From positions 806,001-870,000 of the forward strand of contig JAJIRX010000570.1 of assembly GCA_023853785.1 (NCBI GenBank): 64,000 nucleotides of DNA. The letters run 5' to 3'. The position numbers and the translations under genes are program-made. Source of the stretch: Psilocybe azurescens. Its lineage: Eukaryota; Basidiomycota; Agaricomycetes; Agaricales; Agrocybaceae. A model generated the notes under the pieces. The model worked only from the letters and a program-made list of their open reading frames with translations. It searched no databases and was not told the DNA's origin. Shown piece by piece: positions 24,171 to 59,419 of this stretch. Within the stretch, counting starts at the first letter, position 1, and every line of letters begins with the position of its first letter.

Positions 24171-24565
24171 GCATGGATAAAGCCGACAGTCAAGTAGTCA
24201 AGAACAGCGAGTTCCAAGCGGTATTGAGTAAGAGGGGATTAGATTCTCAAGAACTAGCTAAGAAATAATAGCAGTGTCTACTGGCTATTTAAGTGTTTTT
24301 GAGTATCTACAATTATAGTACGATATGAGTCCAAGTATGAGTCAAAGCATAGGATGAGTCGTAACGGTGCTGTCGATGTGAGTCAGAATGTGAGTCAGAA
24401 CGGAAGTGAGTCATAACAGTATTGATGATGTGAGTCAGAGTAGAATGAGTCAAATATGCGATCACATGATATTGTCCATCATGTGATAAGAAGGTTTTTA
24501 TATACAAAAATGAAATGCAAAGAAAAAGAAAAGAGAAAAGGCAAAGAAATAATGTGTCCGTAACA
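24171..24565 (-). repeat. Gypsy2 3' LTR (truncated)
   Basis: Minus-sense start TGTTACGGACACATTATTTC at 24565. It shares AGCTAGTTCTT (near 24249-24259, reverse) with the 5' LTR and contains a tandem GTGAGTCAGAATGTGAGTC-type region that is about 30 bp longer than in the 5' LTR. It ends at 24171 against the Gypsy3-family LTR. Confidence 0.9.
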
Positions 24566-24580
24566 TTACCCCCTTCTAAG
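24566..24580 (-). promoter_or_regulatory. Gypsy2 polypurine tract
   Basis: Minus-strand AGAAGGGGGTAA directly precedes the TGTTACGG LTR start; Gypsy1 has ACGGGGTAA at the same place. Confidence 0.75.
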
Positions 24581-24606
24581 GTTTGACTGTCCCAGTCAAA
24601 TTGTCT

Positions 24607-25352
24607 TCAATATTTGTAGGGTTCCCCTGTGTTGTTTGCGATGCCAATGTCATCCATGGGGTCGTCATAATCAAACTGATCGCTTCCATGAGCAATGTCG
24701 TCACACTTGAAAGGACAGTGTCTTGCTGTATGTCCAGGTCCTTGTCGGTGGCAATAGTTGCAGGTGAACTTGGGGCAATGTTGTTGCATATGTCCCAGCT
24801 TTCTACATATGAAGCATGTAACATCCGATCGATGTTGATTCCCAGCACTCAACTGTCTGAAGTGAGTTGGGTGATGAGAAGGCGTGCCGGTCTGATCATT
24901 TATGTTAAAAGGTCGGGGTGGATCAACGTTGGCAAGTCGTTCTGCAGGGACATCTGCATCTTTGAAGTGGGTTATATCTGGGATGATAATAGGAGGGAAG
25001 ATGAATCGGGGTTTCTTTACTGTACAATGTTTGATGAGTATGTGTTCGATGGCTCATTTGAATCCTTTTTGTTGAAGGCGTTTGAGGGTATCGCTGGTGG
25101 CCTTGTGATGGACTCGGACTCTTGCATGTTTGACTGCAATGTCCACCTTGATGATTCATATTTTGCTGGCTAAATAGTTGAAGAATTTGAGTTCTCGTTT
25201 GACAAAAGGGGGACAAAGGGCTTCAACGTCGTATCGGTTTTTGGCATTTTCAAGATTTTGAGAAGTTTGTAGACAGAAAGAGTATTAAAAAGCTGAGACA
25301 ATGTAGTAGTAGGTTGGGCAGCAGAGGAGGCATGAGCAGTGGAATGAGACAT
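24607..25352 (-). pseudogene. Gypsy2 ORF4: post-chromodomain protein with two zinc knuckles
   Basis: Begins MSHSTAHASSAAQPTTTL at 25352 and, after frame breaks, ends in an 81-codon open stretch with CFICRKLGHMQQHC (CX2CX4HX4C) and CNYCHRQGPGHTARHC (CX2CX6HX4C), an acidic tail (DYDDPMDDIG) and a terminal NTGEPYKY. The Gypsy1 equivalent starts MSFINTPAASSSSTPAN, keeps both knuckle spacings and ends NTTGEPYGN. The gene lies between ORF3 and the 3' LTR, where env-like or extra ORFs occur in some retroelements. It is distinct from the Gag knuckle at about 35545. The conserved double knuckle suggests RNA or DNA binding; the real role is unknown. Confidence 0.7.
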
Positions 25353-25375
25353 TGTCGAGTATCAATATTTGTTGC

Positions 25376-25690
25376 CTAGAAGTGTAGTGACTTAACCTTT
25401 CTTATAGCCTTTGTCGCCAGTCTGGGTTTAAGTTTTTCCTTGAGTTGAGAAATCTGCAGTTGATACTCTAGATTCTGGTCATGCACTATTGCTGCGCATC
25501 TTGCCTTGAGTTCATTGCGTGCTTGTTTCTCCACTTCTAGAGACATTATGAACACTATTTTGAGCTCTTCAAGCATTCATTGTTGATCTTCTTGGGATTT
25601 TGGTATTTTTATCGTGAGGAAAATAGATTCGTGGATATGTTGGGGAAAAAGAGTGGACTTGACGTGTTTGATCGAGAAAAAGGAGAGCAT
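25376..25690 (-). pseudogene. Gypsy2 ORF3: small coiled-coil-like protein
   Basis: Starts MLSFFSIKHVKSTLF at 25690, 38 bp after the chromodomain stop (25729-25731). A TGA interrupts it before MLEELKIVF; the rest is Leu/Lys/Glu-rich (EKQARNELKARC, LQISQLKEKLKPRLA) and ends KAIRKVKSLHF. The Gypsy1 counterpart ends IAKVVKKAKSFYL and has a matching VEELEML / VERELYQRL pattern. A heptad-like Leu spacing suggests a coiled coil. About 100 residues; function unknown. Confidence 0.65.
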
Positions 25691-25728
25691 GTCAATTGAT
25701 TATTGAGTGAGGGAAGATGGTTGTCTTT

Positions 25729-26899
25729 TTACAGCTTGTGATGTGTTCGGTAAGTCCGTAAAATTTTGTTACCAGTTTCTTCAAAGACCAAAGCAGGTTC
25801 CCATGTTGCTTTGGTGATCAGATAGTCTTTCCATTTGACGTAGTATTGGTATTCTCTTCCTCTTTTTCGATGTTTGAGAATCGTCTCTATTTCCCAATGT
25901 TCTTCTTTGTTTAATATCTCTGGTGGCGGTCAAATGAAATTGGGTCCATGTGTTTCGGTTTCATGATATGGATTAAGAAGTGTTGCATGGAATATGTTGT
26001 GAATGAGCCATCTTTTGGGGAGTTCCAGCCGATAAGTTAGGGGTCCTAAGACTTCTTTGATCTTGAAGGGTCCTTCTCGTTTTGGTGCCATTTTCTTGTG
26101 ATAATTTGTTTGTAAATTTGTTGCTTCTAGCCAAACCTTTTGTCCTTGGGTGAACAGTGTGAAATTTGAGTTTTTCCTTTCAGCCATCCTTGTATGGGCT
26201 AGTTCGTGGGCTGCTAGGGCTTCTTCTCAATCTTTTGGAGGAACTTCAGTCTTTCTTCTACCAAAGGGAATTTGGTGTGTTCAAATGCGGTGGGAATTGC
26301 AATAGGGAAATATCCGAGAATCAATTTGAACAGTGTTCTCTGTCTGTCTGCATGTCTTTTGGTTATTGTGGGTGAATTCAAGGGTTCCGAGTCGTTTGTG
26401 CCAGTCTTCCAGGTGAGATGAGCAGTATATGGATAGATAAGCTTTAATTTCTTGGTTGTATCATTCTGTTGTTCTGTCCGTTTGAGGGTGATAAGCAGTT
26501 GAAAATTTTGATTTTACTCTAAGGAGTTTCATTAACTCTTTGAATGATTCAGCGGCAAATCTGGGGTCTCGATCTGATGTGAGACTGTCTGGTAGCCCAA
26601 ACCTTTTGTAGAGATTGTCCAGTAAGAGTTTGCCAGTCTTTTGGCATCCAGTCCTTTCATTCGGCATGGAATAAGGATGAGTCCTTTTGTGTTCCCGTGA
26701 TTGGTGATGCTTAGAATCATGTCAAATTCAACTTCTCCTTTTTGTCCAGGATTGGTGGAAGGTCTGTAAGGAAATCCATAGCGCTGTCTGCAAAGGATCA
26801 GGCTGACTTTGGTCCAGGTATCGGTATGAATGATGGATTAGAGGGATGTTGATTTATCTTGAATTGTTGGCAGGTGGCATATCCTTTTATGTATTGTTT
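25729..26899 (-). pseudogene. Gypsy2 integrase C-terminal two thirds and chromodomain
   Basis: From W leftwards: VKQYIKGYATCQQFKIN (end of the HHCC finger), IPCRMKGLDAKR, RFGLPDSLTSDRDPRF (second catalytic Asp), STAYHPQTDRTTE (catalytic Glu region), QKVWLEATNLQTNYHKKMAPK with GPFKIKEVLGPLTYRLELP (GPY/F module), HATLLNPYHETETHGPNF, and a C-terminal chromodomain EEHWEIETILKHRKRGREY followed by YYVKWKDYLITKATWEP. The chromodomain normally directs integration to marked chromatin. Several stops are present. Confidence 0.9.
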
Positions 26900-27067
26900 C
26901 ACATGGGACAGTGATCAAATGATGTACCATACGGAATTTGAATTATTTATGATCTAACGTGTCACACGGCCTGAAAGAGACTCACTGAAAAGCCAATTAT
27001 CTTGTGCTTGTCACGGTGTCAAGTGAGGGCCTAAAATTCTCATGTGAGGTACAGTGTCAAGTGGGCC

Positions 27068-28274: not shown

Positions 28275-28529
28275 AGTGGGCCCATCCCTGATACACCAAA
28301 CACTGGCCCTGTGGGAAATTTTTTGATTTCGGCAGCTGGTTTGCAGCAAATTTGGCACTGGCTACTGCCATTCTAATGACCATTCCATGGGATATTTTCA
28401 TCCCTATTTTGATACTTTTACCATGGTTGGTTTACTAATTTAGATTCAATTGTAGGGAAAATTGGGGAAGAAATAGAGCCAGAAGTCCACTCCAATTTAT
28501 CCAGTTTCCTGGCTTCATGGACACTGCAA

Positions 28530-32470: not shown

Positions 32471-32895
32471 TTGCAGTGTCCATGAAGCCAGGAAACTGGA
32501 TAAATTGGAGTGGACTTCTGGCTCTATTTCTTCCCCCAATTTTCCCTACAATTGAATCTAAATTAGTAAACCAACCATGGTAAAAGTATCAAAATAGGGA
32601 TGAAAATATCCCATGGAATGGTCATTAGAATGGCAGTAGCCAGTGCCAAATTTGCTGCAAACCAGCTGCCGAAATCAAAAATTTCCCCACAGGGCCAGTG
32701 TTTGGTGTATCAGGGATGGGCCCACTTGACACTGTACCTCACATGAGAATTTTAGGCCCTCACTTGACACCGTGACAAGCACAAGATAATTGACTTTTCA
32801 GTGAGTCTCTTTCAGGCTGTGTGACACGTTAGATCATAAATAATTCAAATTCTGTATGGTACATCATTTGATCACTGTCCCATGTGGTATTGTTT

Positions 32896-34861
32896 GACAA
32901 ATGAGCATAATCCTGGCCACCAGTAGTGTTGTTTTATTGAGTTGAATGTCTCCAGTTCTCCAGGGTGTCCAGCTGAGATAGGGTCATGATACGATTTGAC
33001 TATGTTCTTCCATAAGATTTGATCTTTTGAGATATAGGCTCGTCCGTGGTAGTATAAGATAGTTTTTCCGTTCACATTTTCTGTCTTCCATTCTTTGAGG
33101 TTGTGTCGTGCATTTGGCGGTCCTCCTTCTAATAGGGTTTTCGTTGCTTCTGCTGTGTTGTGGTCCAGCTTGTTTGCACTGGCAATCCTTTCCTGTAACT
33201 CAGCGTCAATTAAGTTGATGAAAAGTTTTTCTGGGAGTAGGGTGATGTTTTTATTGTCGTGGTCTTCTTCTGAGGTAAAATTGGGGTGTCTTGAAAGGGT
33301 ATCAGATTGAATCATTCTGTTTCCGGGTAGATGTACCAATTTCAGGTTGAATTCTGAGACGTACAGGGACCAGTGCACCTGTCATCAGTTCAGATTTTGG
33401 GCTGATCTGAAATATGTCAAATTCTTGTGATCTGAATATACTATGGTCATGTGTTCTGATCCCTGGATGTAATGTCTCCATTCCTGTAATGCTCAGATTA
33501 TTCCCAATAATTCCCTGTCATAGATTTCGTAATTTATTTTGGTTGGGGAAAATGTCCTTGATATAAATGCACATGGGTGTCTTTCACCATTTCCATCTAG
33601 TTGGGTAAGGACTGCTCCAGAGGCATATTTTGAAGCATCAGATTCGATTTGAAATGGTTTAGCAGGGTCAGGCATCAAGAGTACAGGTTCTTCTGTGAAT
33701 CATTTCTTTAGTTTGTCAAAGGCAGCTTGAGTTGTGTCATTCCATAGAAAACCTTTGTCTTTCTTCAGGAGTTCATTCAGAGGTCGAGCTACCTCAGAGA
33801 ATTTCCAAATGAACTTTCAGTAAAAGTTTCCAAAGCCTAGAAATGATCAGACTTGTTTGAGAGTAGTAGGCGCTGGCCAGTCTTGAATTCCTTTGAGTTT
33901 CGTTGGGTCCATGGAGATTTTTCCTGCTTCGACAATCATTCCAAGATATTCCACCTTCTCTTGAGCAAATGAGCATTTTTCCGGTTTGAGATAAAGATTG
34001 TTTTCTGAGAGTCGTTGTAGAATCATTTTGGTGTATTTTTCCAGTTCCTCTCAATCTTTGCAAAGATTAAAATGTCGTCCATATAGATGATTATGAAGCA
34101 TTGTGATATCATATCTTTGAAGATCGAGTCCATCATGGATTGGAAGGTTGCCAGGGAGTTACACATGCCAAAGAACATTACAGTTGGTTCGAAAAGTCCT
34201 CAGTTGGTTTTAAATGCTCTTTCCATTGGTCACCATCTTTTATCCAGATGTTGTTGTAGCCCCATTGGATGTCTAGTTTAGTGAAGAATTTTGTGCCTTT
34301 CAATTTGTCCATAAGTTCCGTAATCCATGGTAATGGGTAAGCATTTTTGATCATCCAGTTGTTCAGATACCTGTAGTCTTGGCAAGGTCTAAGCTTCCCA
34401 TCTTTCTTTGATACAAAGAAGAAGGGAGACGCCATAGATGATTCCGAGGGTCGAATGTATCCTTTGTCCAGTTGTTCCTTTGTCCAGTTGTTCCTTTGTC
34501 CAGTTGTCCTGTTCTGTTTGTTCTGCCGGTGTGATATTATATGCCTTGAATTTTTTGGTATAAATCCTTCTTTTAACTTGATTTTATGGTCCCATGGTCT
34601 TGGTTCCGGGAATTGGTCTGCCGCTTGTTTATCGAAAAGGTCCATATATGATTGATATTCTGGAGGAATGATTTCTTGGAGAGGTTTTGTCGGTTTCTCT
34701 AGTTCATATTGTTGGGCTAGTGTTTGCAAGGTAGTGATTTTGGTGTTAAGCCAGGTTTCTTTTATTTTGACTTTGTTCGCATCCCCGATATATCGGATGA
34801 TTAACGACTCGAATTCCTCCAATGGGTGGGTAGTCTTGATTGTTGACATTTGTTTGTCCAT
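32896..34861 (-). pseudogene. Gypsy2 reverse transcriptase, RNase H and integrase finger
   Basis: RT from 34861: EYQSYMDLFDKQAADQFPEP, HKIKLKEGF, ASPFFFVSKKDGKLRPCQDYRYLN, TKFFTKLDIQWGYNN (motif A, Asp present) and, after frame changes, IYMDDILI at about 34085-34060 (catalytic Y-x-DD). RNase [21 protein letters not shown] with [25 protein letters not shown], then LVHLPGNRMIQSDTLSRHP. Integrase finger start: SAGHPGELETFNSIKQHYWWPGL, cut by W at FVKQY. A 17-bp unit is tandemly triplicated at about 34462-34508, adding RNNWTKEQL-type residues absent from Gypsy1. Confidence 0.92.
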
Positions 34862-36283
34862 TTCCTCTTCAATGGTAGTCTGATTTATCGTAGGTCCTTG
34901 ACATGGTTTCCAAGTTATTTGCCTGTTCTGCCAGTTGATTCATGGATTCTTTTCCTGTAGCCAAGGGAAGCCTAGAATAATTTTCTGTTTCCTTAGTCCA
35001 GAGACCAGTAATTGTTCCCGATGGTTCCGATTTCCAACCTTTAGGTCCAGGTCTACGAATGATGAGATGGTTCCTTTTTGTTTGGGTCCCGTCTACATTA
35101 TAAACTCGGATCAGTTTTTCCAAGGGTTGGGTTCTGAGTCCAAGTTTTGTGCATAGTTCTGGTCAATGAATTTCCCTCCTGCTCCTGAATCTAAGAGCGC
35201 AGAGGTTTCAACGATTTGTGAGCCATTCTGTTTCTTTGCAGGGAATGAAACTGGTAGAAGCATAGTTTTATTCTCGATTGTTGCTGTAAGTACAGATTGT
35301 ATCTTCAGATAAGGAGAGACAGACGTCGTCCTGTTTCTCCACTTTAAAAATCCTTTTCTTCTTTCTCTTCAAATCTCATTTTGACCATGAGGTCTGCGAG
35401 TTTGTCCTTTTTGTCCTTGTTTAAGTTCCTGATGTGACTATGTAACTCCTTTGGGGTCCATTTCTTGCTAGGTTGTCCTTGGGTCTTGTTCTGGTTTGTT
35501 GGTCCTTTCTGTGGGCATTCCCTGGATAGGTGTCCTCATTGTTTGCACCTGAAACAGGCACCTTTCCTGATTAATTTGGCTCATTCTTCAGCTGTTATGG
35601 CGCTTACATCCATCCTGTTTGGGTCATAGTTCCTGTTGTTCCTTGTAAAGTTGTTCCATCATGGGATCCTTCTGCGTTCTTCTGGTTCTTCTCTAAAGGT
35701 TTTTGCTAGTCTGTAGTTGGTGTTGAAGATGCTTACCTTTTTGTACCATCCCTGGATTGTCCTTGGGAGATCTTCAGAATACATGATCTTGTCAGCGAAG
35801 TTGGGGTGTGATGCACTTTTGGAATAATCCTATGAGATGAGTGTGGTCTGATTCCGATTCTGTTCCTAGATTGGCCTATCCTACCAACAACTTGAATTTG
35901 TTGATGATATCTTCCACCCTTTTGTTGGACTTTTGCCTAATCCGCTTTATGTTGTTCATGGCTGATCTGGTTTCGTCTACTGGAGTGAATGCATCGTGGA
36001 ATTTTTTGAGAAATGTTCCAAGGGTGTCCCATTTGAGGGTTTGGTTGGGAGTGGTTCCTCTCATCCTCAAGGTCAAGTATTGTTCTTTCCATAGTTTTGC
36101 TCCTCCTTCCATGCAAAATGATAAGATGAAGGCAATTTTCTTCTTGTCTGTGTTGTAGACATCGTTGTTTATGTCCATGTAGAGGTAGCAGTCTTGTATG
36201 AAAGACTTGGATTTTGTTCTATCTCCATCAAATACAGCAGGTTTGTTGATCTTGATTTCTTTCTTTCCGTTTGTTTCAACCAT
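34862..36283 (-). pseudogene. Gypsy2 Gag and protease
   Basis: Gag starts MVETNGKKEIKINKPAVFDG at 36283 and includes FILSFCMEGGAKLWKEQYL and FLKKFHDAFTPVDETRSA, matching Gypsy1 Gag in order. The Gag zinc knuckle at about 35570-35530 reads ACFRCKQ, a stop, then GHLSREC. The protease site LLDSGAGGKFIDQNYAQNL lies at about 35195-35140, followed by KLIRVYNVDGTQTKRNHL. Frames change at least four times. The DSGAGGKFIDQ motif is identical in Gypsy1. Confidence 0.88.
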
Positions 36284-36536
36284 TTCTGTGTTGTGTTGTT
36301 CTTCCTGATCTATCGCCAGTGTTAATAATAGGTCAAATAATGAGTTTGATAGGTCTTCATTGCCTAGGTTGATATCTTCAGAGCTTTGTCTGGACAGGTT
36401 CAGTGTTTGCCAATTTTGTGTCAGGGTTTCTTCTTCTGAGCTATCGGTAGCGGGAACTCTGCTTTTTGGTGGTGCCGTGTTTTGTTTTTGGTTTCAGAGG
36501 TCTCGTCTGCTGGAAAGCAGGCAAGACTTGTAGATG

Positions 36537-36547
36537 AGCTAGTTCTT
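36537..36547 (-). promoter_or_regulatory. Gypsy2 self-priming binding site
   Basis: Minus-sense AAGAACTAGCT lies 1 nt after the 5' LTR end. It is the exact complement of AGCTAGTTCTT at 36665-36655 inside the same LTR. This is the arrangement of Tf1/sushi-type self-primed elements, where the RNA 5' end folds back to prime reverse transcription; no tRNA match is needed. Confidence 0.8.
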
Positions 36548-36548
36548 T

Positions 36549-36932
36549 TGTTACGACTTCAAGCTTATATTCACGTGCATGGATAAAGCTAACAGTCAAG
36601 TAGTCAAGAACAGCGAGTTCCAAGCGGTATTGAGTAAGAGGGGATTAGATTCTCAAGAACTAGCTAAGGAATAATAGCAGTGTCTACTGGCTATTTAAGT
36701 GTTTTTGAGTATCTACAATTATAGTACGATATGAGTCCAAGTATGAGTCAAAGCATAGGATGAGTCGTGAACGGTGCCATCGATGTGAGTCAGAATGTGA
36801 GTCAGAGTAGAATGAGTCAAATATACGATCACATGATATTGTCCATCATGTGATAAGAAGGTTTTATATACAAAAATGAAATGCAAAAGAAAAAGAAAAG
36901 GGAAAAGGCAAAGAAATAATGTGTCCGTAACA
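36549..36932 (-). repeat. Gypsy2 5' LTR
   Basis: 384 bp, minus-sense TGTTACGGACAC to GTCGTAACA. A TTAAATAG TATA-like box lies about 35 nt upstream of the AGCTAGTTCTT motif, supporting that motif as the RNA start. Confidence 0.88.
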
Positions 36933-47632: not shown

Positions 47633-48480
47633 TGTAACTTCCTTGCATTCCAAGCGATACTAATACATGGTTTATATACCAGAGAACATAGAAAAATATT
47701 TAAAAGAGATCAAGTGTCCAAACTATACTAATCATTCTGTAGAACGACACCCAGTAGTCCCATCTGTCAACTACATACAATAGATTGAAGGCTGACGGAG
47801 TTTAGGAGTGAAAAATAGAAGGATGAGTAAGTAAGTAACATAGGATGAGTAAGAAGTATAAGCAGGATTATGAAAAGCGAAGTGAGATGAGTAAGAAAGA
47901 AGCGAAGCTGAGTAAGTACAATAAGCAAGAATGACAAAAGGAAGGAAGGATCAATCATATGAAAGTGTCAGACAATAGAAAAGGAGCCAAAATAGCGAAC
48001 AAGTACCATGCTAATGAATAGAACCAGTCTATTCATGGCACAGCTCAGTCATCCATTACCAAGACTGCTGAGTGAGACAAAGATTTGCTACATATGTGGA
48101 ATCCAGTTAAGGACCAAATAGTTGTAGATGACCAAATGCTGATGACAATGGTGATATATGATGCTGTGCAGTGCTGTGCATACTAGGATATATAGGAATG
48201 ATGTCCAGAAATGAGCTGCGTATAGCCTTGAGGTTCAAAATAGATAGACGATTGAATCATTGATAGGGAATGTAACTGATCAAATGGTTGAAGTGGAGAT
48301 TGAAAGTTAGAATGGAGATTGAAGTGGACTGTGAATGGACTTCAACGTTGAATATTGAGGGATGTGCTTCAGATAAAAGTGCAAAATAATAACCCTGACT
48401 TCTGCATGCAATGGGGAGTCAAGACAGATGCTCTAAGCTTATAGATAAATCTCATATCCAATCAAAATTGGTGTATGACA
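47633..48480 (-). repeat. Gypsy3-family LTR, complete
   Basis: 848 bp; minus-sense TGTCATACACC to GGAAGTTACA, nearly identical to 23324-24170. Plus-strand text shows GGATGAGTAAGTAAG-type short repeats. It directly abuts Y3 at 48481. Confidence 0.85.
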
Positions 48481-49389
48481 ACGCGTGCCCGGCATCGGCC
48501 GATCAGCACGACAACCATCAAATGAACGACCCCAACCTTTCTTCCGACTACCACCACCACCACCTTGTTGATCGGAGCCAGGCGACAGCCAACCCGACGC
48601 AACAGAGGTTGACGACCGAGGACAAGGACAAGGACAAGGACAAGGACGTGGACACGGATGGCGGCCGCAACAGGGACGAGCATGACAGGGACGAGGATGA
48701 GGACGAGAACGCGGACACAGACAACGGCTGCAACAACGGCGAGAACGGGGACAGTGGCTGTGACAGTGACAGCGACGAGGACGGATGCGGACGACAGCGA
48801 CAAGGATGTGGATGCGGATGCGGACGGTGGCTGCAACAGGGACGAGGACGGATGGGGACAACAGGGACGGGGACGAGGATGCAGATGCAGACGGCGGCTG
48901 CAACAGCGATGAGGACAGACGGGGACGATGGCTGCGACAACGACGAGGACGGGGACGGCGGCTGCAACAGCGACAGATACCGATGTGGTACCGGCGACCC
49001 GACGGATGACACGTACAATGGTAAAGTACTGCTCCTGCCCCCCCTTTTTTATTTTTTATTTTATTCGCTTTTTCTTCGTTTTGTCTTGGCCCTCGCATGT
49101 AGATATGTAGTAATGTATTAAATAGTTATTAATATACTCTATTCCACTAATCTGAATTTATGTTAAGATTGAATTTATTTACTGTATCAAGTCCACTGGA
49201 GTCCAGTGGACTGCAGTTATCTTAGTCCATATTCACTGTATAGTATAAGATCTACTAAAGTGCAGTGGAATCCACTGGAGTCCACTGGACTCTGTTTACC
49301 TTTTACACTCAGTATATAGGCAAGTCCAGTGGAGTCCAGTGGAGTCCAGTGGAGTCCATATGGACTGTGTGGGGGATGGTAAAGTACTG
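48481..49389. mobile_element. Element Y3, left-truncated
   Basis: Starts inside the Y family at the CGTGCCCGGCATCGGCCGAT block (equivalent to 44918 in Y2), continues through the shared ACCACCACCACC block and a GACGAGGACGG minisatellite, an internal GGTAAAGTACTGC motif (49020), CCACTGGA subterminal repeats and the complete right end GTGTGGGGGATGGTAAAGTACTG. Its left half is missing at the junction with the LTR. Confidence 0.82.
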
Positions 49390-49844
49390 GTCTATTCATG
49401 GCACAGCTCAGTCATCCATTACCAAGACTGCTGAGTGAGACAAAGATTTGCTGCATATGTGGAATCCAGTTAAGGACCAAATAGTTGTAGATGACCAAAT
49501 GCTGATGACAATGGTGATATATGATGCTGTGCAGTGCTGTGCATACTAGGATATATAGGAATGATGTCCAGAAATGAGCTGCGATATAGCCTTGAGGTTT
49601 GAAATAGATAGACGATTGAATCACTGATAGGGAATGTAGTTGATCAAATGGTTGAAGTGGAGATTGAAAGTTGTAATGGAGATTGAAGTGGACTGTGAAT
49701 GGACTTCAACGTTGAATATTGAGGGATGTGCTTCAGATAAAAGTGCAAAATAATAACCCTGACTTCTGCATGCAATGGGGAGTCAAGACAGATGCTCTAA
49801 GCTTATAGATAAATCTCATATCCAATCAAAATTGGTGTATGACA
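49390..49844 (-). repeat. Gypsy3 3' LTR, first 455 bp
   Basis: Directly follows the Gypsy3 coding region in minus sense (TTTTGGGTGGA then TGTCATACACC). It matches the start of the LTRs at 48480 and 24170 and is broken at 49390 by Y3. Confidence 0.88.
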
Positions 49845-51868: not shown

Positions 51869-52416
51869 GTTAGGAACAGTACTTTACCATCCCCCACACA
51901 GTCCATATGGACTCCACTGCACTTTAGTAGATCTTATACTATACAGTGAATATGGACTAAGATAACTGCAGTCCACTGGACTCCAGTGGACTTGATACAG
52001 TAAATAAATTCAATCTTAACATAAATTCAGATTAGTGGAATACAGTATATTAATAACTATTTAATACATTACTATCTACCTGCCAGGGCCAAGACAAAAG
52101 GAAGAAAAAAAGCGAATAAAAATAAAAAATAAAAAAGGGGGGGCAGGAGCAGTACTTTACCATTGTATGTGTTGTCCGTCGGGTTGTTGGTATGTGTTCT
52201 ACCCTTTGTTGTAGTCTTTGCAGCTGTCGTCTGTGTCGTCTTTGCAGCTGCTGTCTGCATCGTCTTTGCCCTTGTCATCGCTGTCGCAGCCGCCGTCCTT
52301 GTACCCGTTGGTACCTGTCGCCGTTGTTCACGTCCCCATCGCCATTGCAGCCTCACAGCTGCCATCCTTGCCATCCTTGTACCTGTCGCCCTTGCCCTCA
52401 TTGCTGTCGCAGCTGT

Positions 52417-52856
52417 TGTTATGACTTACGACAAGTCTTTTTCTTTTCTTTTCTTTTCCTTTTTCTTTTCTTGTCCATCATATCTCTGATGGACATTTCA
52501 CTCTATCTTTTATGATACATCTTTTGATGAACGTTTGATCTGTTTCCTTTATTCTTATATACATCTGCTGATGAACATTTGGTCTTGTTTCACTTCTATC
52601 TTTTATGATACATCCTTTGATGAACGCTTGATCTGTTTCCTCTATTCTTATATACATCTGCTGATGAACACTTAGTCTCGTTTCAACTTGCTGTACAGTT
52701 CATAGTATTTATACCAGGGAGGATCTACTGTATTCTTTAGCTAGTTCTTGAGAATCCAACCTGCTTAACCTATTCAACTTGAACTTGAACTTGTTCTTGT
52801 AAACGATTGGTGGTTAGATTACGCACACTGCGTGATTCTAACTTGAGATCGTAACA
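52417..52856 (+). repeat. Gypsy1 5' LTR
   Basis: 440 bp, TGTTATGAC to GATCGTAACA. U3 holds a TTTTC-rich pyrimidine tract and an about 92-bp tandem duplication (CTTCTATCTTTTATGATACATC ... GATGAACA), which might duplicate regulatory sites. Confidence 0.95.
52706..52749 (+). promoter_or_regulatory. Gypsy1 TATA box and predicted transcript start
   Basis: TATTTATA at 52706-52713 lies about 26-33 bp before AGCTAGTTCTT (52739-52749), the motif complementary to the PBS. In self-priming elements this motif is the very 5' end of the RNA, so both clues point to a start at 52739. Confidence 0.7.
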
Positions 52857-52857
52857 A

Positions 52858-52868
52858 AAGAACTAGCT
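52858..52868 (+). promoter_or_regulatory. Gypsy1 self-priming binding site
   Basis: AAGAACTAGCT, 1 nt after the 5' LTR, is the exact reverse complement of 52739-52749. Same sequence, spacing and partner as in Gypsy2. Confidence 0.85.
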
Positions 52869-53109
52869 TCTCACTCTACCATACTGCTTCGTCCACAAGC
52901 AGTATCGGGAGCCCGAACCAGACACCACGACACCTCTGACGCTGAACCTTTCCGCAAACTACAACACCGACGACAGTGGTGAACGAACGCCTACATCAGA
53001 CGTTCAGCCCACTACCCGAACCCCAGGACTATCGTCAGGAGAAGAATACTTCACTGATGCCTCTGAACCCTCTGAAACCTCTGAAACCTCTGAACCAAAA
53101 AAAACACAA

Positions 53110-54045
53110 ATGGTTGACCAACAAATGACGATCGACACCCTGAAGACAAGGGAACTCTCTCTTAGCAAACCTACGCCCTTCAATGGTGAACGGTTTAAAA
53201 GCAAGAAATTCCTTCAAGAATGTATCCTCTATATGGGGATCAACAAGGACCTCTACGACACCGAACCGAAACAGATTGCGTTCATCCTCTCTTACATGCA
53301 AGAAGGGAACACAGTCGTTTGGAAACAACAATTCATCCAAAACAAACTGAACCTCGACACAGGGGACATTGACTTACCGACATACAAGGAATTTATCAAC
53401 AAATTCCAGAAGGCATTCAAGCCAGAAGAAGAAGACATCGATGCGTTAGACAAATTAAAAACGCTTCGACAAATGAACCTGACTGCCGAACAATTAGTAA
53501 CCAAGTTCAAACTACTGGTTGGAGAAGCGGGATGTCTAACGACTCTGACACTGCCAATGAACTCTTGATTGAAATGTTCAAGACAGTGCTAAACCCGGCG
53601 CTAGTGCAGAAGATTATCCAGTCCGAGAAGAGGCCCACCAAAATCGAAGAATGGTACGACAAAGCCATGTCTTTCAATAGGAGCTATCGACTTGCTATGT
53701 CAATAAGAGGCCCGTCTCAATCAAACGCGCGATTCATCCCCAGATCCGGCGCCAAAAAGGGACCCCTTCACAATGGATGTCGATGTCATGACCACCGAAG
53801 AATGAACAAGCCTTATGAAAAAGGGGGCTTGTTTCAGATGCAAACAACCAGGACATCTCGCTGTAGATTGTCCTCAGAAGAAGAAAAACAATCCTTTCAT
53901 CTTGAAGAAGGAATTACCAAAGAAGAAATGGACAGCAAAGGACCTTCATGCCCATATCCGGGAGTTGAACATGGAGGAGAGAGAGGAACTGGCGAGCTTG
54001 GCAATGGGAGACCAGGAGGAGGACACCAATACTGAGGATTTTTAA
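53110..54045 (+). pseudogene. Gypsy1 Gag
   Basis: MVDQQMTIDTLKTRELSLSK starts the longest frame; FNGERFKSKKFLQECILYMG, IAFILSYMQEGNTVVWKQQF and FINKFQKAFKPEEEDIDALD form the capsid region and align with Gypsy2 Gag. Frames change at about 53530 and 53800. The nucleocapsid has one CCHC knuckle CFRCKQPGHLAVDC, followed by a basic stretch and KDLHAHIRELNMEEREEL, ending at 54045. An upstream Ser/Glu/Pro-rich stretch (52990-53100) with a repeated TCTGAAACC may belong to the same ORF. The role is particle assembly and RNA packaging. Confidence 0.88.
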
Positions 54046-54184
54046 AATGGAGAACCGAATCGACGTCGGTCTCTCCACAATTAGGCATCTATTCTGTATT
54101 TATGGCTATGCTCGAGAATAAATCTATGCATTTACCGATTTCTTTCTCTGCCATAAAAACGGAAAGCCACAAATCGTCGAAACC

Positions 54185-55584
54185 TCGGGTCTAGTAGACT
54201 CTGGAGCTGGTGGAAAATTCATTGACCAAAACTACGGCTAGGAAACTAGGACTTGAACAAAAGACCTTGAAGAGAAACCTCACGGTATACAACGTGGACG
54301 GAACCCTCAACAAGAAAGGAACAATCTCTACCTTTGTAGAACTCAATCTTACCATCGGGAATAGAACAAACAAGGAAATTCTATTTGTCTCTGGACTAGG
54401 ACGACAAAAGATTATTCTAGGTCTACCTTGGCTTCAAAAACGAAACCCCAACATCGATTGGGAAACTGGAAAAGTCAAATGGAGGGTTTCCAAATCTATC
54501 CGCACTACCACTATGGAAGAAAAACTGGAAGAAACTGAACCAATAACGAACACCACGGACGCCTACCGAAGACTTCAACGCTTTGGTAATAGATTTTATC
54601 AAAGCAAAAGACTCCGAAGAAATGGACCAGGCATGGATCAGCGAAAACTACGGGCTTCACAAACTCTGGCAATGGAACACGAAAACAGAACACCCGCTAA
54701 ACCACTGGAAGAACTTATTCCCCCGGACCTCCACGACTACCTTGGACTTTTCGACAAAAAGGCAGTAGATCGATTTCCCATTTCAAGACCTTGGGACCAC
54801 AAAATCGAATTAAAGCCTGGATTCAAACCAAAACCATGCAAAGTCTACAGTCTCACCCCAGAAGAACAAATCGAACAGGACAAATTTCTTAAAGAAATGT
54901 TGGACAAAGGATACATCGTCAAATCGGAATCGGACATCGCATTGCCTTTTTTTCTTTGTAGCCAAGAAAGACGGAAAACTGCGACCTTGTCAAGACTATC
55001 GATATCTAAACGAATGGACAATAAAGAATGCCTACCCTTTACAACGGATCCCTGATCTACTGGACAAACTTAAAGGAGCAAAATTCTTTACCAAGTTAGA
55101 CATTAGACAAGGATACAATAATGTCCACATTCAAAAGGAAGATCAACAGAAAGCCGCCTTCAAAACAAATCGAGGACTCTTTGAACCCACGGTTATGTTC
55201 TTCGGATTATGCAATTCCCTGGCCACTTTTCAATCCATGATGGATTTGCTGTTTGAAGGCGAAATATCTGGAGGGTTCGTGATTATCTACGTGGACGACA
55301 TCCTAATCTTTGCTGAAAATCAAGAAGATTTGGCAAAATACAAACAGATTGTCCTACAAAGACTAAAGGATAACGACCTGTACCTCAAGCCAGAGAAATG
55401 CGTCTTCAGACAACGAAAAGTCAAATACCTGGGAATGATAATCGAAGAAGGAAAAATCTCCATGGACCAATCGAAACTTAAAGGAATCCGAGACTGGCCT
55501 GCGCCTACCACAGTCAAGCAAGTCAGAGGATTCCTGGGATTTGAAATTTCTACCGAAAATTCATCAGGAAGTTCTCTACAGTAG
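54185..55584 (+). pseudogene. Gypsy1 protease and reverse transcriptase
   Basis: The protease site DSGAGGKFIDQNY at 54196-54234 ends in a TAG one frame away from the continuation (TARKLGLEQKTLKRN, VYNVDGTLNKKGTIS, IILGLPWLQKRNPNIDWETG). RT: LHDYLGLFDKKAVDRFP, HKIELKPGFKPKPCKVY, a frameshift in the T7 run at 54945-54951 (which breaks the FFVAKKDGKLRP motif), then AKFFTKLDIRQGYNN (motif A), FFGLCNSLATFQSMMD (motif B) and IIYVDDILIFAEN (motif C, catalytic Asp pair intact). The last 129-codon frame ends at 55584 with another shift. Confidence 0.93.
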
Positions 55585-55592
55585 CGCAACCC

Positions 55593-57683
55593 TTGAACGA
55601 TCTCCTAAAGAAGGACAAGAAATTTGAATGGATGGACGCAGCTCAACGAGTGTTTGATGAACTGAAACAACAATTCACGGAAGAACCGGTTCTCTCAATG
55701 CCAGACCTGAGCAAACCATTTCAGATCGAATGCGACGCCTCTAAATATGCATCTGCAGCCATTCTGACTCAACTTGATGGAAATGGTGAAAGACACCCAT
55801 GCGCATTTATTTCGAAAACCTTTTCCGCGAACAGAAAGGAACTACGAAATCTACGATTGAGAACTTCTGGCAATTGTATGGGCATTACAGGAATGGAGAC
55901 ACTACATTCAAGGATCCGAACACACGATGATCATTCATTCTGACCACAAGAACCTGACCTACTTCAGAAGCCCGAGAAATCTGAACAGACGGCAAGCTCG
56001 ATGGTCATTATTCCTATCTGAATTCAATCTGAAACTAATCCACATGCCCGGAATGAAAATGATTCAATATGACACTTTATCAAGAAGACCAGATTTTATT
56101 CCAGACGAAGACCACAATAATGAAGATGTGACTCTACTACCGGAGGAACTCTTCGTCAATCTAATCGACACCGAACTACAACAGAAAATCATTGATTCAG
56201 AAGAATTCGACACAGATATTGCGGAAATCCTGAAAGCTCTACTGCAAGGAGGACCACCAAACTTATGAACCGACCTCGACGACTGGAGAACGGAGGAATT
56301 CAACGGGAAAAACATCATTTTTATAAAGACAAAACATATATACCGAAGAACCAAAACCTCCACGCCAACAAGTGGTAAAATCCCTCCACAATCTACCATT
56401 GGCAGGACACCCCGGAGAACTTGAAACCTACAATGCAGTAAAAGCACATTACTGGTGGCCAGGGCTACGATCCTTCGTAAAACAATACATCAAAGGCTGC
56501 GGAATCTGTCAACAATTCAAAATTAACAGAAACCCTTCTCATCCATCTTTCATGCCAATCGCCGGACCAACTTCTATGCGACCATTTGCAAACTGTTCAA
56601 TGGACTTTCTAACTGATTTACCACCGGTTAAGAACAGTGCAGGACAGATCTTAGACGCGATCATGGTCGTGGTAGACCATGGGCTTACTAAGGGGGTGAT
56701 TTTAATACCTTGCCGAAAGAAAGGGGAAACCAGGAGAGGCACTTGACGTAGAAGGAGCAGCTCAACTCTTACTCGACAACCTCTTCAAACAATTTGGACT
56801 CCCAGATAGCATCATCTCAGACCGAGATCCCCTATTCACCGCAAAAGTCTTTCAAGAACTCATGAAACTCTTGGGAATCAAGTCCAAATTAACCACGGCT
56901 TATCATCCAATAGGAGACGGAACCACTGAACGATTCAACCAAGAAATAGAAGCCTACCTATCCATCTATTGTTCGTCACACCCAAACGACTGGAACAAGT
57001 CAATTGGAACATTGGAATTCACTCACAACAACAGGAAACACTCCGAAAGAGCCAAAACCCCATTCGAACTTACCTTAGGTTCATCTCCATTGGCCATTCC
57101 ACTTGCATTCGAGAACACCAAAGCCCCATCAGTGGAAGAAAAGGTCAAACACCTTCTAAAAGATCGAGAAGAAGCGTTAGCCACCCACGAACTTGCAAGA
57201 CAAAGAATAGCCGAACAACAAAAATCGACCTTCAAACCGTTCAAGAAAGGAGCGAAAGTTTGGCTAGACTCTCGCAACATCTCCACTAGGTACCATTCAA
57301 AGATGAAACTGAAACGAGAGGGCCTGTTCACGATCACAGAAGTCTTGGGACCTCTCACATACAAACTCGAAATACCCAAGATATGGAAGATCCACGACGT
57401 CTTCCACGCCACTCTACTCATGCCATACAAAGAGACAGAAACATACGGACTGAACTTCCCTAGACCACCACCCGAGATCAAAAATCAGGAAGAACACTGG
57501 GAAGTCAAAACTATTTTGAATCACAGAAAGACTGGACAAAAACCCAAGAAAGGAAAGCGAAAATATCAATACCTCGTCAAATGGACCGGATTCCCTATCT
57601 CAGAAGCAACGTGGGAAAAAGATGACGTGTTCGACGACGACAGCGAGATTCTTCAAGAGTACCACCAATTACACAAACTCTGA
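55593..57683 (+). pseudogene. Gypsy1 RNase H, integrase and chromodomain
   Basis: RNase [57 protein letters not shown]. Integrase: AGHPGELETYNAVKAHYWWP plus CGICQQFK (HHCC), NCSMDFLTDLPPV (first Asp), LPDSIISDRDPLF (second Asp), TAYHPIGDGTTERFNQEIE (catalytic Glu). The final 273-codon frame (56862-57683) is intact and runs through the GPY/F-like module (KLKREGLFTITEVLGPLTYK) into a chromodomain: EEHWEVKTILNHRKTGQ, YQYLVKWTGFPISEATWE. Frameshifts lie at about 55840, 56260-56370 and 56735. Confidence 0.94.
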
Positions 57684-57701
57684 TTCATCCCTACCATCCT
57701 G

Positions 57702-58027
57702 ATGCCTCACTTTCTCCAACGCATCGCCTCTTCCTTCACTCGAAACTCTGAAACAAACCAACTCGAAACTCCCATCTTTGATACCCCTTTGACTGATCAG
57801 ACTGTAGAAGAGCTTGAGATGCTGCAAAAGAAATTCTCATCAAATACAACAAAACGATCGATCAGAAAGAGACGGCAAACCAGAACTATTGCCCGGCTGC
57901 TGCTAAACTTGCCCACCACCAAGCCAGATCTCTACGCCTCAAACTAAATCAAGTTGAACGAGAGCTCTATCAACGCCTTCCACTAATTGCCAAGGTAGTT
58001 AAAAAGGCCAAGTCGTTCTATCTCTAA
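57702..58027 (+). pseudogene. Gypsy1 ORF3: small coiled-coil-like protein
   Basis: Starts MPHFLQRIASSFTRNSET 18 bp after the pol stop. One frameshift at about 57825 divides it; the downstream frame reads IKYNKTIDQKETANQNY, then SLRLKLNQVERELYQRL and ends VVKKAKSFYL. Length about 108 residues. It aligns with Gypsy2 ORF3 in position, length, Leu/Lys/Glu pattern and terminal KVKSLHF/KAKSFYL. A post-pol coiled-coil protein is not a standard chromovirus component. Function unknown; an assembly or nucleic-acid chaperone role is only a guess. Confidence 0.7.
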
Positions 58028-58058
58028 ACCATACCCCCAACTACCCAAACAACGCAAC

Positions 58059-58932
58059 ATGTCTTTTATCAATACTCCTGCCGCTTCTTCCTCTTCTACC
58101 CCTGCCAACTCATGCCCGTGAGGCAAACTACCTGCCGTACCTCGCTATGCTCAAACACTGTCAACCTTCAAAGCCCTAGACCTCTTCACCCGATGACGAG
58201 ACGGCTCAGAAAATCTGCTCGTACTTTGAAGACCCAGACACTATTCTTGCCATCGATGAACTGGCAAAGGTCTCCAGAGCCCACCAACAAGAAGAACGAG
58301 AAATCCGTCTTGCCAGGCTCTGATCTCGTACTCGAAAAACAATGGCAACTGTTCTGCTGGATCAACTTCAATCGTGGGGACTAGAAAGAGAACTTTACGA
58401 CGTGTTGAGAAAACATCATCGCGAATCACCCACAACGTGAAAACCGTCCGTATTTCCTCTCACTAGTCACCCTCTTCAGAACACCGTCCCTTCTTGTCCT
58501 CTTCCTGCCCACCCTCCTGCCTATCGTCGAGCAGTACGATTTTCACCAGTCATTGACAATTCACCACAGATTTTGCCTCCTGCCTCCACTCCCTCAAGAT
58601 CTCCCATCCCTACGCCTCCACCTCAACGATCTCCAAAGAAAACGATTTGCCAATGAAGCTCGTCCAACACTTCGTCAACTACAACAAATCGCTCAACAAG
58701 CACAACGTCGGTCACCTGCTACCAATGCGGAGAGCCTGGGCACATTCGCCCCAAATGCCCCAAGTTCAAATGCATCTACTGTTACCGATATGCACCTGGA
58801 CATTCTTTCCGAGACTGTAGCTATAACCCCGAGAACGAGCAACACATTGACCCCTATTATGGAGGAGTTGACAAGGATCTTCTCGACAATGCTGGAATCG
58901 TGAACACCACAGGCGAACCATACGGAAACTAA
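58059..58932 (+). pseudogene. Gypsy1 ORF4: protein with two zinc knuckles
   Basis: Starts MSFINTPAASSSSTPAN, has an acidic/charged middle (ICSYFEDPDTILAIDEL, HQQEEREIRLARL, WGLERELYDVLRKHH), a Pro/Ser-rich linker (SPIPTPPPQRSPKK), then CYQCGEPGHIRPKC (CX2CX4HX4C, from 58717) and CIYCYRYAPGHSFRDC (CX2CX6HX4C, from about 58771), ending GIVNTTGEPYGN at 58932, 62 bp before the 3' LTR. Frame breaks occur at about 58110, 58322, 58437 and 58653. The knuckle spacings and the GEPY end are shared with Gypsy2 ORF4, which argues for past selection on the protein. Confidence 0.72.
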
Positions 58933-58994
58933 CGAGCTCGAAGAAATAATGGACTTCACTCCTTCTGAGGCATAAGGAGTGTAGTACGGGGTAA

Positions 58995-59414
58995 TGTTAC
59001 AACTTACGACAAGTCTTTTTTCTTTTCTTGTCCATCATATCTCTGATGGACATTTCACTTCTATCTTTTATGATACATCTTTTGATGAACGTTTGATCTG
59101 TTTCCTTTATTCTTATATACATCTGCTGATGAACATTTGGTCTTGTTTCACTTCTATCTTTTATGATACATCCTTTGATGAACGCTTGATCTGTTTCCTC
59201 TATTCTTATATACATCTGCTGATGAACACTTAGTCTCGTTTCAACTTGCTGTACAGTTCATAGTATTTATACCAGGGAGGATCTACTGTATTCTTTAGCT
59301 AGTTCTTGAGAATCCAACCTGCTTAACCTATTCAACTTGAACTTGAACTTGTTCTTGTAAACGATTGGTGGTTAGATTACGCACACTGTGTGATTCTAAC
59401 TTGAGATCGTAACA
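58995..59414 (+). repeat. Gypsy1 3' LTR
   Basis: 420 bp, TGTTACAAC to GATCGTAACA. It lacks 21 bp of the U3 pyrimidine tract compared with the 5' LTR and is otherwise nearly identical. Confidence 0.95.
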
Positions 59415-59419
59415 GCTGT

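What the first reader, a model, noticed from the sequence alone, without database searches (positions are those of the whole stretch)
57702..58932. Two conserved extra genes after the chromodomain in two diverged chromoviruses
Gypsy1 (57702-58932) and Gypsy2 (minus, 25690-24607) both carry ORF3 and ORF4 between the pol stop and the 3' LTR. ORF3: about 100 residues, Leu/Lys/Glu-rich, with corresponding ends (KKAKSFYL and RKVKSLHF). ORF4: MS-Thr/Ala/Ser start, charged middle, then one CX2CX4HX4C and one unusual CX2CX6HX4C knuckle, and a shared GEPY end. DNA similarity between the two elements is low, so keeping knuckle spacing and termini suggests protein-level selection. Standard chromoviruses end at the chromodomain; a second, double-knuckle nucleic-acid-binding protein besides Gag would be an unusual accessory module.
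Basis: partly seen in the sequence, partly recalled or inferred. Interest (0 to 1): 0.88.

Follow-up and report, generated by a model that had tools for sequence, protein, structure and literature searches.

The report
Two extra genes in mushroom retrotransposons
A group of virus-like jumping genes in a Psilocybe mushroom carries two extra protein genes after its usual set, one of them a second zinc-knuckle protein likely to bind RNA or DNA; both were kept by natural selection, yet the zinc-knuckle gene is missing from many copies, some of them recent.

Summary
[quoted passage not shown] ORF3: 104-108 aa, predicted as one long helix. ORF4: about 294 aa with a helical domain, P/S/T-rich basic linker, CX2CX4HX4C and CX2CX6HX4C knuckles and a GEPY tail. 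Copies in the same 70-Mb genome and annotated Psilocybe cyanescens proteins show real genes. Frame-0 dN/dS is 0.36-0.39 for ORF3 (both families) and for the two ORF4 domains (Gypsy1 family), 0.7-1.3 in shifted frames; integrase has 0.18-0.28. ORF3, the ORF4 helical domain and the knuckles are homologous between families. A third chromovirus family (integrase 31-39% identical) has ORF3 but no detected ORF4. ORF4 is expendable in cis: an ORF4-deleted form has at least 40 copies, 18 of them 95-100% identical to the query, and a Gypsy2 subfamily has it frameshifted and drifting. Three protein searches found relatives only in P. cyanescens. Likely role: trans-acting RNA-binding cofactors (inferred). 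Weak point: within Gypsy2 the knuckle frame is not demonstrably constrained.

The parts
52418..52856 (+). Gypsy1 5' LTR (TG...CA), preceded by GCTGT at 52413-52417
   Evidence: blastn of the two ends: 99.25% over 401 bases (2 mismatches, 1 gap opening); start and TSD read by eye
52857..52867 (+). Primer-binding site AAAGAACTAGC next to the 5' LTR, complementary to GCTAGTTCTT in the LTRs (52740, 59298): self-priming type
   Evidence: Gypsy2 has the same arrangement; function inferred
53110..54045 (+). Gypsy1 gag, broken: Ty3 capsid domain and one CCHC knuckle
   Evidence: Pfam PF19259 5.2e-10 and PF00098 2.2e-07
54210..57683 (+). Gypsy1 pol, in pieces: protease-like, RT, RNase H, integrase, chromodomain
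   Evidence: Pfam PF00078 6.2e-17, PF17919 1.4e-21, PF17921 6.8e-17, PF00385 4e-12; PF13975 only 0.009 (below its cut-off)
57702..58027 (+). Gypsy1 ORF3 (broken copy; two frames)
   Evidence: relatives
58059..58932 (+). Gypsy1 ORF4 (broken copy; 4 stops, two frames): helical domain, P/S/T linker, CX2CX4HX4C + CX2CX6HX4C, GEPY tail
   Evidence: unbroken annotated relative P0006
58995..59414 (+). Gypsy1 3' LTR, followed by GCTGT at 59415-59419
25376..25690 (-). Gypsy2 ORF3 (104 codons, one stop)
24607..25352 (-). Gypsy2 ORF4 (broken N half; knuckle half open)
25732..26532 (-). Gypsy2 integrase C-terminal part and chromodomain, broken
   Evidence: 56% identical to Gypsy1 integrase, 4 stops inside; PF24626 1.1e-14 on 25930-26184; chromodomain hit C480:831762-831896
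24171..24565 (-). Gypsy2 3' LTR (approximate; its far end appears cut off at about 24171); the 5' copy ends at about 36549
   Evidence: blastn 96% and 97% in two pieces against 36577-36932; ends read by eye

Best explanation
ORF3 and ORF4 are genuine accessory genes of a Psilocybe chromovirus lineage. ORF3 is a small basic protein, predicted as one long helix (coiled-coil type) with a basic C-terminal tail. ORF4 resembles a reduced Gag without a capsid domain: an N-terminal helical domain, probably for self-association, is joined by a flexible basic linker to two zinc knuckles and an acidic tail. Most likely ORF4 binds the element's RNA (or its cDNA) as an auxiliary nucleocapsid or RNA chaperone in export, packaging or reverse transcription, and ORF3 is an oligomeric adaptor in the same particle or transport step. 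The products probably act in trans, so copies without ORF4 can spread where other copies supply it. Shown: the genes exist, are homologous between families and were under protein-level selection; copies without ORF4 have multiplied. Inferred: RNA binding, self-association, trans action and the life-cycle step.
For: Codon-level constraint with 95% intervals over codons (30 Gypsy1-family and 35 Gypsy2-family loci): ORF4 residues 1-130 w 0.39 (0.31-0.48), residues 216-294 w 0.36 (0.27-0.48), ORF3 Gypsy1 family 0.36 (0.25-0.48), ORF3 Gypsy2 family 0.37 (0.28-0.50); shifted frames 0.71-1.32; integrase 0.28 and 0.18. With CpG columns removed the four values become 0.24, 0.34, 0.26 and 0.31. Column test, non-CpG: whole ORF4 p=2.7e-4, ORF3 p=0.011 and 0.0055. 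Metal-ligand positions in the Gypsy1 family plus L073: 27/27, 28/28, 28/28, 27/28, 27/28, 28/28, 22/24, 21/23 kept when mapped on the Gypsy2-type reference; 29/31, 28/30, 27/28, 25/28, 25/28, 26/28, 24/28, 23/27 when mapped on P0006. Homology between families: ORF3 hhalign E 7.3e-5, score 30.2 against at most 16.3 in 40 column-shuffled controls; ORF4 N domain E 7.9e-7, score 42.0 against at most 18.5 in 40 controls; knuckle region 42% identity, E 3e-22. ORF3 in a third family with integrase 31-39% identical. AlphaFold2: ORF4 residues 31-120 block-mean pLDDT 84-97, helices 36-122, linker disordered; ORF3 one helix 33-103. Linker pI 12, tail pI 4.1, no transmembrane-like stretch. Copies lacking ORF4.
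Against: No transcript, peptide or binding data. Within Gypsy2 the knuckle region is not demonstrably constrained in the knuckle frame (w 0.69, interval 0.46-1.01; column test p=0.34), and between the two Gypsy2 groups the overlapping +1 frame is the lower one (0.41 against 0.71; CpG-free 0.34 against 0.98). In Gypsy2 the helical domain and the knuckles share a frame in only 3 of 10 and 4 of 24 loci. In the ORF4-deleted copies the ORF3 column test is flat (p=0.69); only the comparison between the two deleted groups gives w 0.53. Pooled pairs are not independent, and counting methods are crude. No PDB match to the ORF4 model reached E 0.001. Trans action is inferred only from the spread of copies lacking ORF4; simple dispensability would look the same.
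Confidence: 0.6

Rival explanations
1. ORF4 is an RNA-export or splicing-control factor (Rev-like, comparable in role to Cer1 CERV) rather than a particle component, and ORF3 is its nuclear partner.
For: CERV of Cer1 shows that an LTR retrotransposon can need an accessory protein for genomic-RNA export (abstract of PMC10309623). MDG1-group sORF1, a ~110-aa protein, is subnuclear (section of PMC11952523). Basic linker and basic ORF3.
Against: No splice acceptor was recognised by eye ahead of ORF3 or ORF4 (no splice-site program was run). In Gypsy1 and Gypsy2 the ORF3 start follows the pol stop by 18 and 38 bases and the ORF4 start follows the ORF3 stop by 31 and 23 bases; in family 3 the pol-ORF3 gap is about 140 bases. 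No localisation data.
Confidence: 0.2
2. ORF4 acts against the host or against competitors: a decoy, silencing inhibitor or Gag inhibitor that uses its knuckles to bind RNA or Gag.
For: ORF4 is lost or drifting in some multiplying subfamilies, as expected if it is not part of the core machinery. A 59-60 aa in-frame remnant with the original start and a G(E/K)PY end is seen in 9 of 27 deleted copies.
Against: The knuckle ligands stayed conserved in the Gypsy1 family and across Gypsy1/Gypsy2; nothing ties it to silencing.
Confidence: 0.13
3. The post-pol region is an env-like gene: ORF3/ORF4 mediate membrane passage or cell-to-cell transfer.
For: Same position as env and plant env-like genes (PMC7264820).
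Against: No hydrophobic stretch: maximum 19-residue Kyte-Doolittle mean 0.48 in ORF4 and 0.43 in ORF3; no Pfam env or fusogen match in the 8 proteins scanned.
Confidence: 0.03
4. The ORFs are chance or decayed fragments of an older element without function.
For: Both window copies are broken.
Against: Frame-specific constraint in two families, unbroken proteins annotated in P. cyanescens, significant homology between families.
Confidence: 0.04

Closest known systems
Sense additional ORFs between pol and 3' LTR (aORF-3S, env-like) in plant LTR retrotransposons
   Same: Same place and strand; in many families present in all or most copies (PMC7264820, parts 1 and 2 of 3 read)
   Different: Those described there have certain similarities to ENV, some with transmembrane domains; ORF3/ORF4 have no such stretch and ORF4 has two zinc knuckles
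brtn of Boty / BcGypsy1 in Botrytis cinerea
   Same: Extra gene of a fungal Gypsy element (passages of PMC8365987; PMC7264820)
   Different: brtn is antisense; ORF3/ORF4 are sense. No sequence comparison was made
'add. ORF' of unknown function in a figure of fungal Gypsy elements, Novikova et al. 2010 (PMC2864245; author name recalled)
   Same: Fungal Gypsy elements with an extra ORF of unknown function (figure legend and section 5)
   Different: The text read does not say which element, size or domain; the figure is not held, so identity with ORF3 or ORF4 cannot be excluded
Bdelloid rotifer ORF3 genes of LTR retrotransposons (PMC5408684)
   Same: Third genes besides gag and pol, shared across lineages (abstract)
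   Different: Those named are env-like, GDSL esterase/lipase or DEDDy exonuclease; the proteins scanned here match none in Pfam
Cer1 CERV and Drosophila MDG1 sORF1
   Same: Accessory proteins of LTR retrotransposons (PMC10309623 abstract; PMC11952523 abstract and one section)
   Different: CERV is made from a spliced mRNA; sORF1 lies upstream of gag; the parts read mention no zinc knuckles in them
Retroviral nucleocapsid (two CCHC knuckles)
   Same: Two knuckles in a basic context; HIV nucleocapsid is the top but non-significant Foldseek match (E 0.56) and a phmmer match (E 0.0012)
   Different: Second knuckle is CX2CX6HX4C; the gene is separate from gag, which has its own knuckle

Membership tests
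Chromovirus (Ty3/Gypsy with chromodomain) | Gag with Ty3-type capsid | tested here: met
   PF19259 5.2e-10 on 53110-53565
Chromovirus (Ty3/Gypsy with chromodomain) | pol order RT - RNase H - integrase | tested here: met
   PF00078, PF17919/PF17917, PF17921 in that order on the + strand; protease only weak (PF13975 E 0.009, below cut-off)
Chromovirus (Ty3/Gypsy with chromodomain) | chromodomain at the integrase C terminus | tested here: met
   PF00385 4e-12 on 56862-57680; Gypsy2 chromodomain C480:831762-831896
Chromovirus (Ty3/Gypsy with chromodomain) | LTRs TG...CA with 5-bp target duplication | tested here: met
   Gypsy1 only
Chromovirus (Ty3/Gypsy with chromodomain) | RT places it in a named fungal chromovirus clade (MarY1, Laccy, Tcn etc.) | not tested
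   no fungal reference RT set at hand; clade names from PMC2864245
env-like aORF | transmembrane or signal-like hydrophobic segment | tested here: not met
   max 19-residue hydropathy 0.48 (ORF4, P0006) and 0.43 (ORF3, P0047)
Antisense aORF-3R (brtn, Grande gene23, Retand) | antisense to gag-pol | tested here: not met
   ORF3/ORF4 are on the gag-pol strand in both elements
Nucleocapsid-like RNA-binding protein | two conserved CCHC knuckles | tested here: met
   ligands conserved in the Gypsy1 family under two mappings; PF00098 above cut-off in P0006 and P0007, below it in P0001, P0003 and P0005. Within Gypsy2 the region is not demonstrably constrained
Nucleocapsid-like RNA-binding protein | binds and chaperones nucleic acid | not testable with these tools
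   needs biochemistry
Rotifer-type enzymatic ORF3 | GDSL esterase or DEDDy exonuclease domain | tested here: not met
   no such Pfam match in the 8 proteins scanned

The most novel reading that the evidence does not exclude
The chromoviruses carry a second, diffusible nucleocapsid system: ORF4 is a capsid-less mini-Gag that self-associates through its helical domain and coats element RNA, with ORF3 as its coiled-coil assembly partner. Because it works in trans, ORF4-less descendants exploit it and have multiplied recently.
Probability: 0.3. Interest if true: 0.8.

Novelty: new variant of a known kind. Interest (0 to 1): 0.62.

Why it matters
Gag and Pol products are considered sufficient for LTR-retrotransposon transposition (PMC7264820). 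A selected pair of extra genes, one a second zinc-knuckle protein beside Gag, would show that fungal chromoviruses can add non-enzymatic cofactors of their own. The natural series in one genome (ORF4 whole, frameshifted or deleted; ORF3 with or without ORF4) is a ready comparison for asking which gene is needed in cis and which can be shared.

Tried and rejected
Env-like role: rejected for lack of any hydrophobic stretch. Read-through or a fixed frameshift from pol into ORF3: rejected as a shared mechanism, because ORF3 is in the pol frame 18 bases after the stop in Gypsy1 but in another frame 38 bases after it in Gypsy2 (read by hand). The ORF4 deletion as a removed intron: rejected by reading the junction by eye (no GT-AG ends, a short shared GA; from the sequences and peptides, not a tool result). 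Sequencing error as the sole cause of broken frames: unlikely for the ORF4 and integrase stops, which are mostly CGA to TGA (39 in ORF4 and 28 in integrase of the Gypsy1 family; not so in ORF3); it remains possible for homopolymer indels in Gypsy2 ORF4.

An overlapping +1 frame through the knuckle region is about as open as the knuckle frame (20 of 26 Gypsy1-family copies without a stop against 18 of 26; 13 of 25 against 7 of 25 in Gypsy2). In Gypsy2 it has the lower pooled dN/dS (0.50 against 0.69; 0.41 against 0.71 between the two Gypsy2 groups), but codon-position columns do not differ significantly (p=0.34); left open. ORF3-ORF4 profile match at 100% probability: an artefact, since P0005 and P0009 hold both genes. 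Match of ORF4 to CPSF4 (E 6.5e-6): covers the S/T/P linker and one knuckle, taken as composition plus knuckle. Fold search of the ORF4 model in PDB: 59 matches at E up to 10, none at E 0.001 or less. The ORF3 model (a single helix) was not searched.

Rows dropped before counting: stop codons, codons without a contiguous aligned neighbour, and pairs with fewer than 60, 15 or 5 usable codons. L073 was left out of the Gypsy1 set; L067 and L069 out of the Gypsy2 set there; L071 out of the sister set.

Full report
What is there. The window lies in an unnamed 70.4-Mb assembly (937 contigs). The host is very probably Psilocybe cyanescens or a close relative: the 27 protein matches to an ORF4 query are all named from P. 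cyanescens, the best 96% identical over the whole query. Gypsy1 spans 52418-59414: LTRs TG...CA, 99.25% identical over 401 aligned bases, with GCTGT on both sides. It has a Ty3-type capsid domain, a Gag knuckle, RT, RNase H, integrase and a chromodomain, so it is a chromovirus. Gypsy2 on the minus strand has an integrase 56% identical to that of Gypsy1. After the pol stop both carry two sense genes.

State of the window copies. Both are broken. Gypsy1 ORF3 lies in two frames; Gypsy1 ORF4 has 4 stops and lies in two frames. Gypsy2 ORF3 has 1 stop; its ORF4 has 2 stops and a frame change in the N half and an open knuckle half. With LTRs 99% identical but several lesions in the genes, the Gypsy1 copy was probably copied with help from other elements (inference).

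Relatives in the genome. A DNA search with the Gypsy1 post-pol region gave 46 matches (40 of 119 candidates scored, 80-100% identity); Gypsy2 gave 69 matches (40 of 110 scored). A protein search with ORF3 of the Gypsy2 type gave 137 matches (150 of 183 candidates scored); 35 of the 137 cover residues 1-104 with no stop, the query's own copy included. In 9 of 31 Gypsy1-family loci (30 plus L073) at least 273 of the 294 ORF4 residues fall in one matched stretch of a single frame, most of them with one or more stops. In 20 of 31 the helical domain and the knuckles share a frame; in Gypsy2 only 3 of 10 and 4 of 24 do. Stops in ORF4 and integrase are mostly CGA to TGA, as expected from CpG decay; those in ORF3 are not.

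Relatives in databases. Three searches of 5.8 billion proteins found only proteins named from P. cyanescens: 27, 38 (only the 8000 candidates sharing most words were scored) and 29 matches, overlapping in part. They include ORF3 proteins of 108 aa (Gypsy1 type: P0044-P0047, P0049, P0050) and 104 aa (Gypsy2 type: P0048, P0051, P0054) and an ORF4 of 294 aa (P0006); these are annotated gene models, so introns cannot be excluded. Adjacent locus numbers, for instance CVT25_007706 and CVT25_007707, both on contigs of 2805 bases, suggest that ORF3 and ORF4 are neighbours there too. Unannotated or very distant relatives would be missed.

Selection. I compared codons between copies by counting (NG86), using each copy's own matched pieces and leaving stops out. 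Pooled frame-0 values with 95% intervals over codons (30 Gypsy1-family loci, 35 Gypsy2-family loci): ORF4 residues 1-130, 0.39 (0.31-0.48); linker 131-215, 0.67 (0.56-0.79); residues 216-294, 0.36 (0.27-0.48); ORF3 Gypsy1 family, 0.36 (0.25-0.48); ORF3 Gypsy2 family, 0.37 (0.28-0.50); ORF4 helical domain in Gypsy2, 0.56 (0.43-0.72). Integrase controls: 0.28 (0.24-0.34) and 0.18 (0.13-0.27). Shifted frames of these same segments: 0.71-1.32. Dropping every column in which any copy has a CG gives 0.24, 0.66, 0.34, 0.26, 0.31 and 0.45. A cruder test on shared variable non-CpG columns by codon position gives p=2.7e-4 for whole ORF4 (residues 1-130 0.00095, linker 0.7, residues 216-294 0.012), 0.011 and 0.0055 for ORF3, 0.0044 for the ORF4 helical domain in Gypsy2, and 5.3e-8 and 3e-8 for integrase. 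Against: the knuckle region within Gypsy2 has w 0.69 (0.46-1.01), its +1 frame 0.50, and p=0.34. Pooled pairs share history, so the intervals are too narrow.

Homology between families. ORF3: hhalign E 7.3e-5, score 30.2, best of 40 column-shuffled controls 16.3. ORF4 helical domain: E 7.9e-7, score 42.0, best of 40 controls 18.5. Knuckle region: 42% identity over 92 columns, E 3e-22; pooled Gypsy1-Gypsy2 dN/dS in frame 0 is 0.27 with saturated dS, against 1.08 and 1.07 in shifted frames (CpG-free 0.43 against 1.33 and 1.07). The eight metal ligands in the Gypsy1 family are kept in 21-28 of 23-28 loci per position on one mapping and 23-29 of 27-31 on another; on the second, ligand positions have a mean commonest-residue share of 0.91 against 0.79 at 39 other positions of the region.

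A third family. The chromodomain search led to seven other chromodomain loci. One (L101) is a Gypsy2 relative with ORF3 and ORF4. Six (L096-L100, L102) belong to a family with integrase 31-39% identical to Gypsy1 and Gypsy2. In five of the six, ORF3 matches at E 6e-9 to 1e-6 (for that small set); the sixth, L102, has the matching start by eye and a match to the family-3 ORF3 at E 3.3e-5 genome-wide (C884). Recognisable are the start MPHLFSIK(R/H)IKS(T/M)FF in five of the six loci and, where the frame can be read, the end KAIRKAKSLHF or a close variant. The genome-wide ORF3 search finds this family independently (C503, C603, C348, C807, C431: E 6.8e-9 to 9.2e-6), 270-370 bases after chromodomain hits. 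No ORF4 query matched these six below E 1, and in four of them a purine-rich GGTRATGT element follows ORF3 within about 100 bases. So ORF3 is the wider gene, and ORF4 was gained, or lost, separately.

Copies without ORF4. Of 15 loci taken by integrase divergence, seven lack ORF4 between about residues 46 and 279. A search with that form gave 40 matches, all at or near full length (40 of 131 candidates scored); 18 are 95-100% identical (the query included) and 22 are 89-90%. This list, like those for the whole form, is capped, so I cannot say which form is commoner. In the 27 deleted loci examined ORF3 is still there (87-107 of 107 residues matched) while ORF4 matches at most 62 of 294; 20 of the 27 were chosen with a query that included ORF3, so only the other seven are free of that bias. 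Six of the eight integrase matches that are at least 80% identical, reach from residue 1 to 253 or beyond and have no stop belong to deleted copies. ORF3 constraint there is mixed: w 0.80 and 0.76 within the two groups, 0.53 between them, column test p=0.69. In 9 of 27 an in-frame remnant of 59-60 aa keeps the old start and a G(E/K)PY end; its first 45 residues have w 0.38 within the deleted set but a column test of p=0.06. Separately, a Gypsy2 sister subfamily has a net 64-base loss between the two ORF4 domains (my reading); in 23 sister loci the helical domain has dN/dS 0.90 (0.69-1.20), while ORF3 has 0.62 (0.43-0.97) and integrase 0.19 (0.13-0.30).

Structure. AlphaFold2 gives ORF4 (17 sequences) mean pLDDT 63: helices 36-43, 46-53, 59-105 and 108-122, block means 84-97 for residues 31-120, a disordered linker, and 65-77 for the knuckles. 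No PDB match reached E 0.001; the best is HIV nucleocapsid at 0.56. ORF3 (16 sequences) is one helix, residues 33-103, mean pLDDT 78. Pfam finds zf-CCHC in ORF4 (above cut-off in two of the five ORF4 proteins with knuckles scanned) and nothing above cut-off in ORF3.

Interpretation. A helical domain, basic flexible linker, two knuckles and an acidic tail make ORF4 look like a Gag without capsid; the element's Gag already has one knuckle. The simplest role is an auxiliary nucleocapsid or RNA chaperone, with ORF3 as a coiled-coil partner. That copies without ORF4 multiplied means it is not needed in cis; supply in trans is my preferred reason, but it may simply be dispensable. The export-factor role known for Cer1 CERV (abstract) is the main rival.

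What is known. Extra ORFs after pol are a known kind (PMC7264820, two of three parts read; PMC5408684 abstract). Fungal cases seen here are the antisense brtn of Boty and an 'add. ORF' of unknown function in a figure legend. In the eight paper searches that were answered, from listings and abstract starts and the papers opened, I saw no description of a chromovirus with a double-knuckle gene after the chromodomain; most subscription papers are not in that library. Hence: new variant of a known kind.

Noticed in passing
52857-52867 (Gypsy1) and 36538-36548 (Gypsy2, minus): The primer-binding site of both elements (AAAGAACTAGC right after the LTR) is complementary to GCTAGTTCTT inside the LTR, in Gypsy1 about 35 bases after a TATA-like stretch: self-priming as recalled for Tf1/sushi-type elements.
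   Followed up: partly
58550-58970 and relatives: A +1 frame overlapping the knuckle part of ORF4 is open in many copies and is used as a predicted C-terminus (FTPSEA end) in P. cyanescens gene models such as P0011, P0013 and P0027; in Gypsy2 its pooled dN/dS is lower than that of the knuckle frame.
   Followed up: partly
G000 copies, e.g. L062, L068, L076-L087: A group of elements 95-100% identical to the query lacks most of ORF4; similar breakpoints occur on two different sequence backgrounds, which suggests recombination or a repeated deletion between short repeats.
   Followed up: partly
8435-10780, 12290-12970, 17860-18607, 28264-29749, 31196-32737: Families of roughly 175-base tandem repeats, some as long inverted copies (28264-28467 against 32534-32737, 97%; 28455-28926 against 32074-32545, 99%).
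   Followed up: no
24171-36932: Gypsy2 is interrupted: its integrase end lies at 25732-26532 and an integrase zinc-binding part at 32872-33375, with repeats and other sequence between.
   Followed up: no
10949-11248: A stretch 65% identical (without gaps) to part of the Gypsy1 LTR, holding the same GCTAGTTCTT motif at 11187.
   Followed up: no
23324-24170, 47634-48480, 49383-49844: Repeats of 200-300 bases each, 94-99% identical in two or three places of the window (D10, D12, D14).
   Followed up: no
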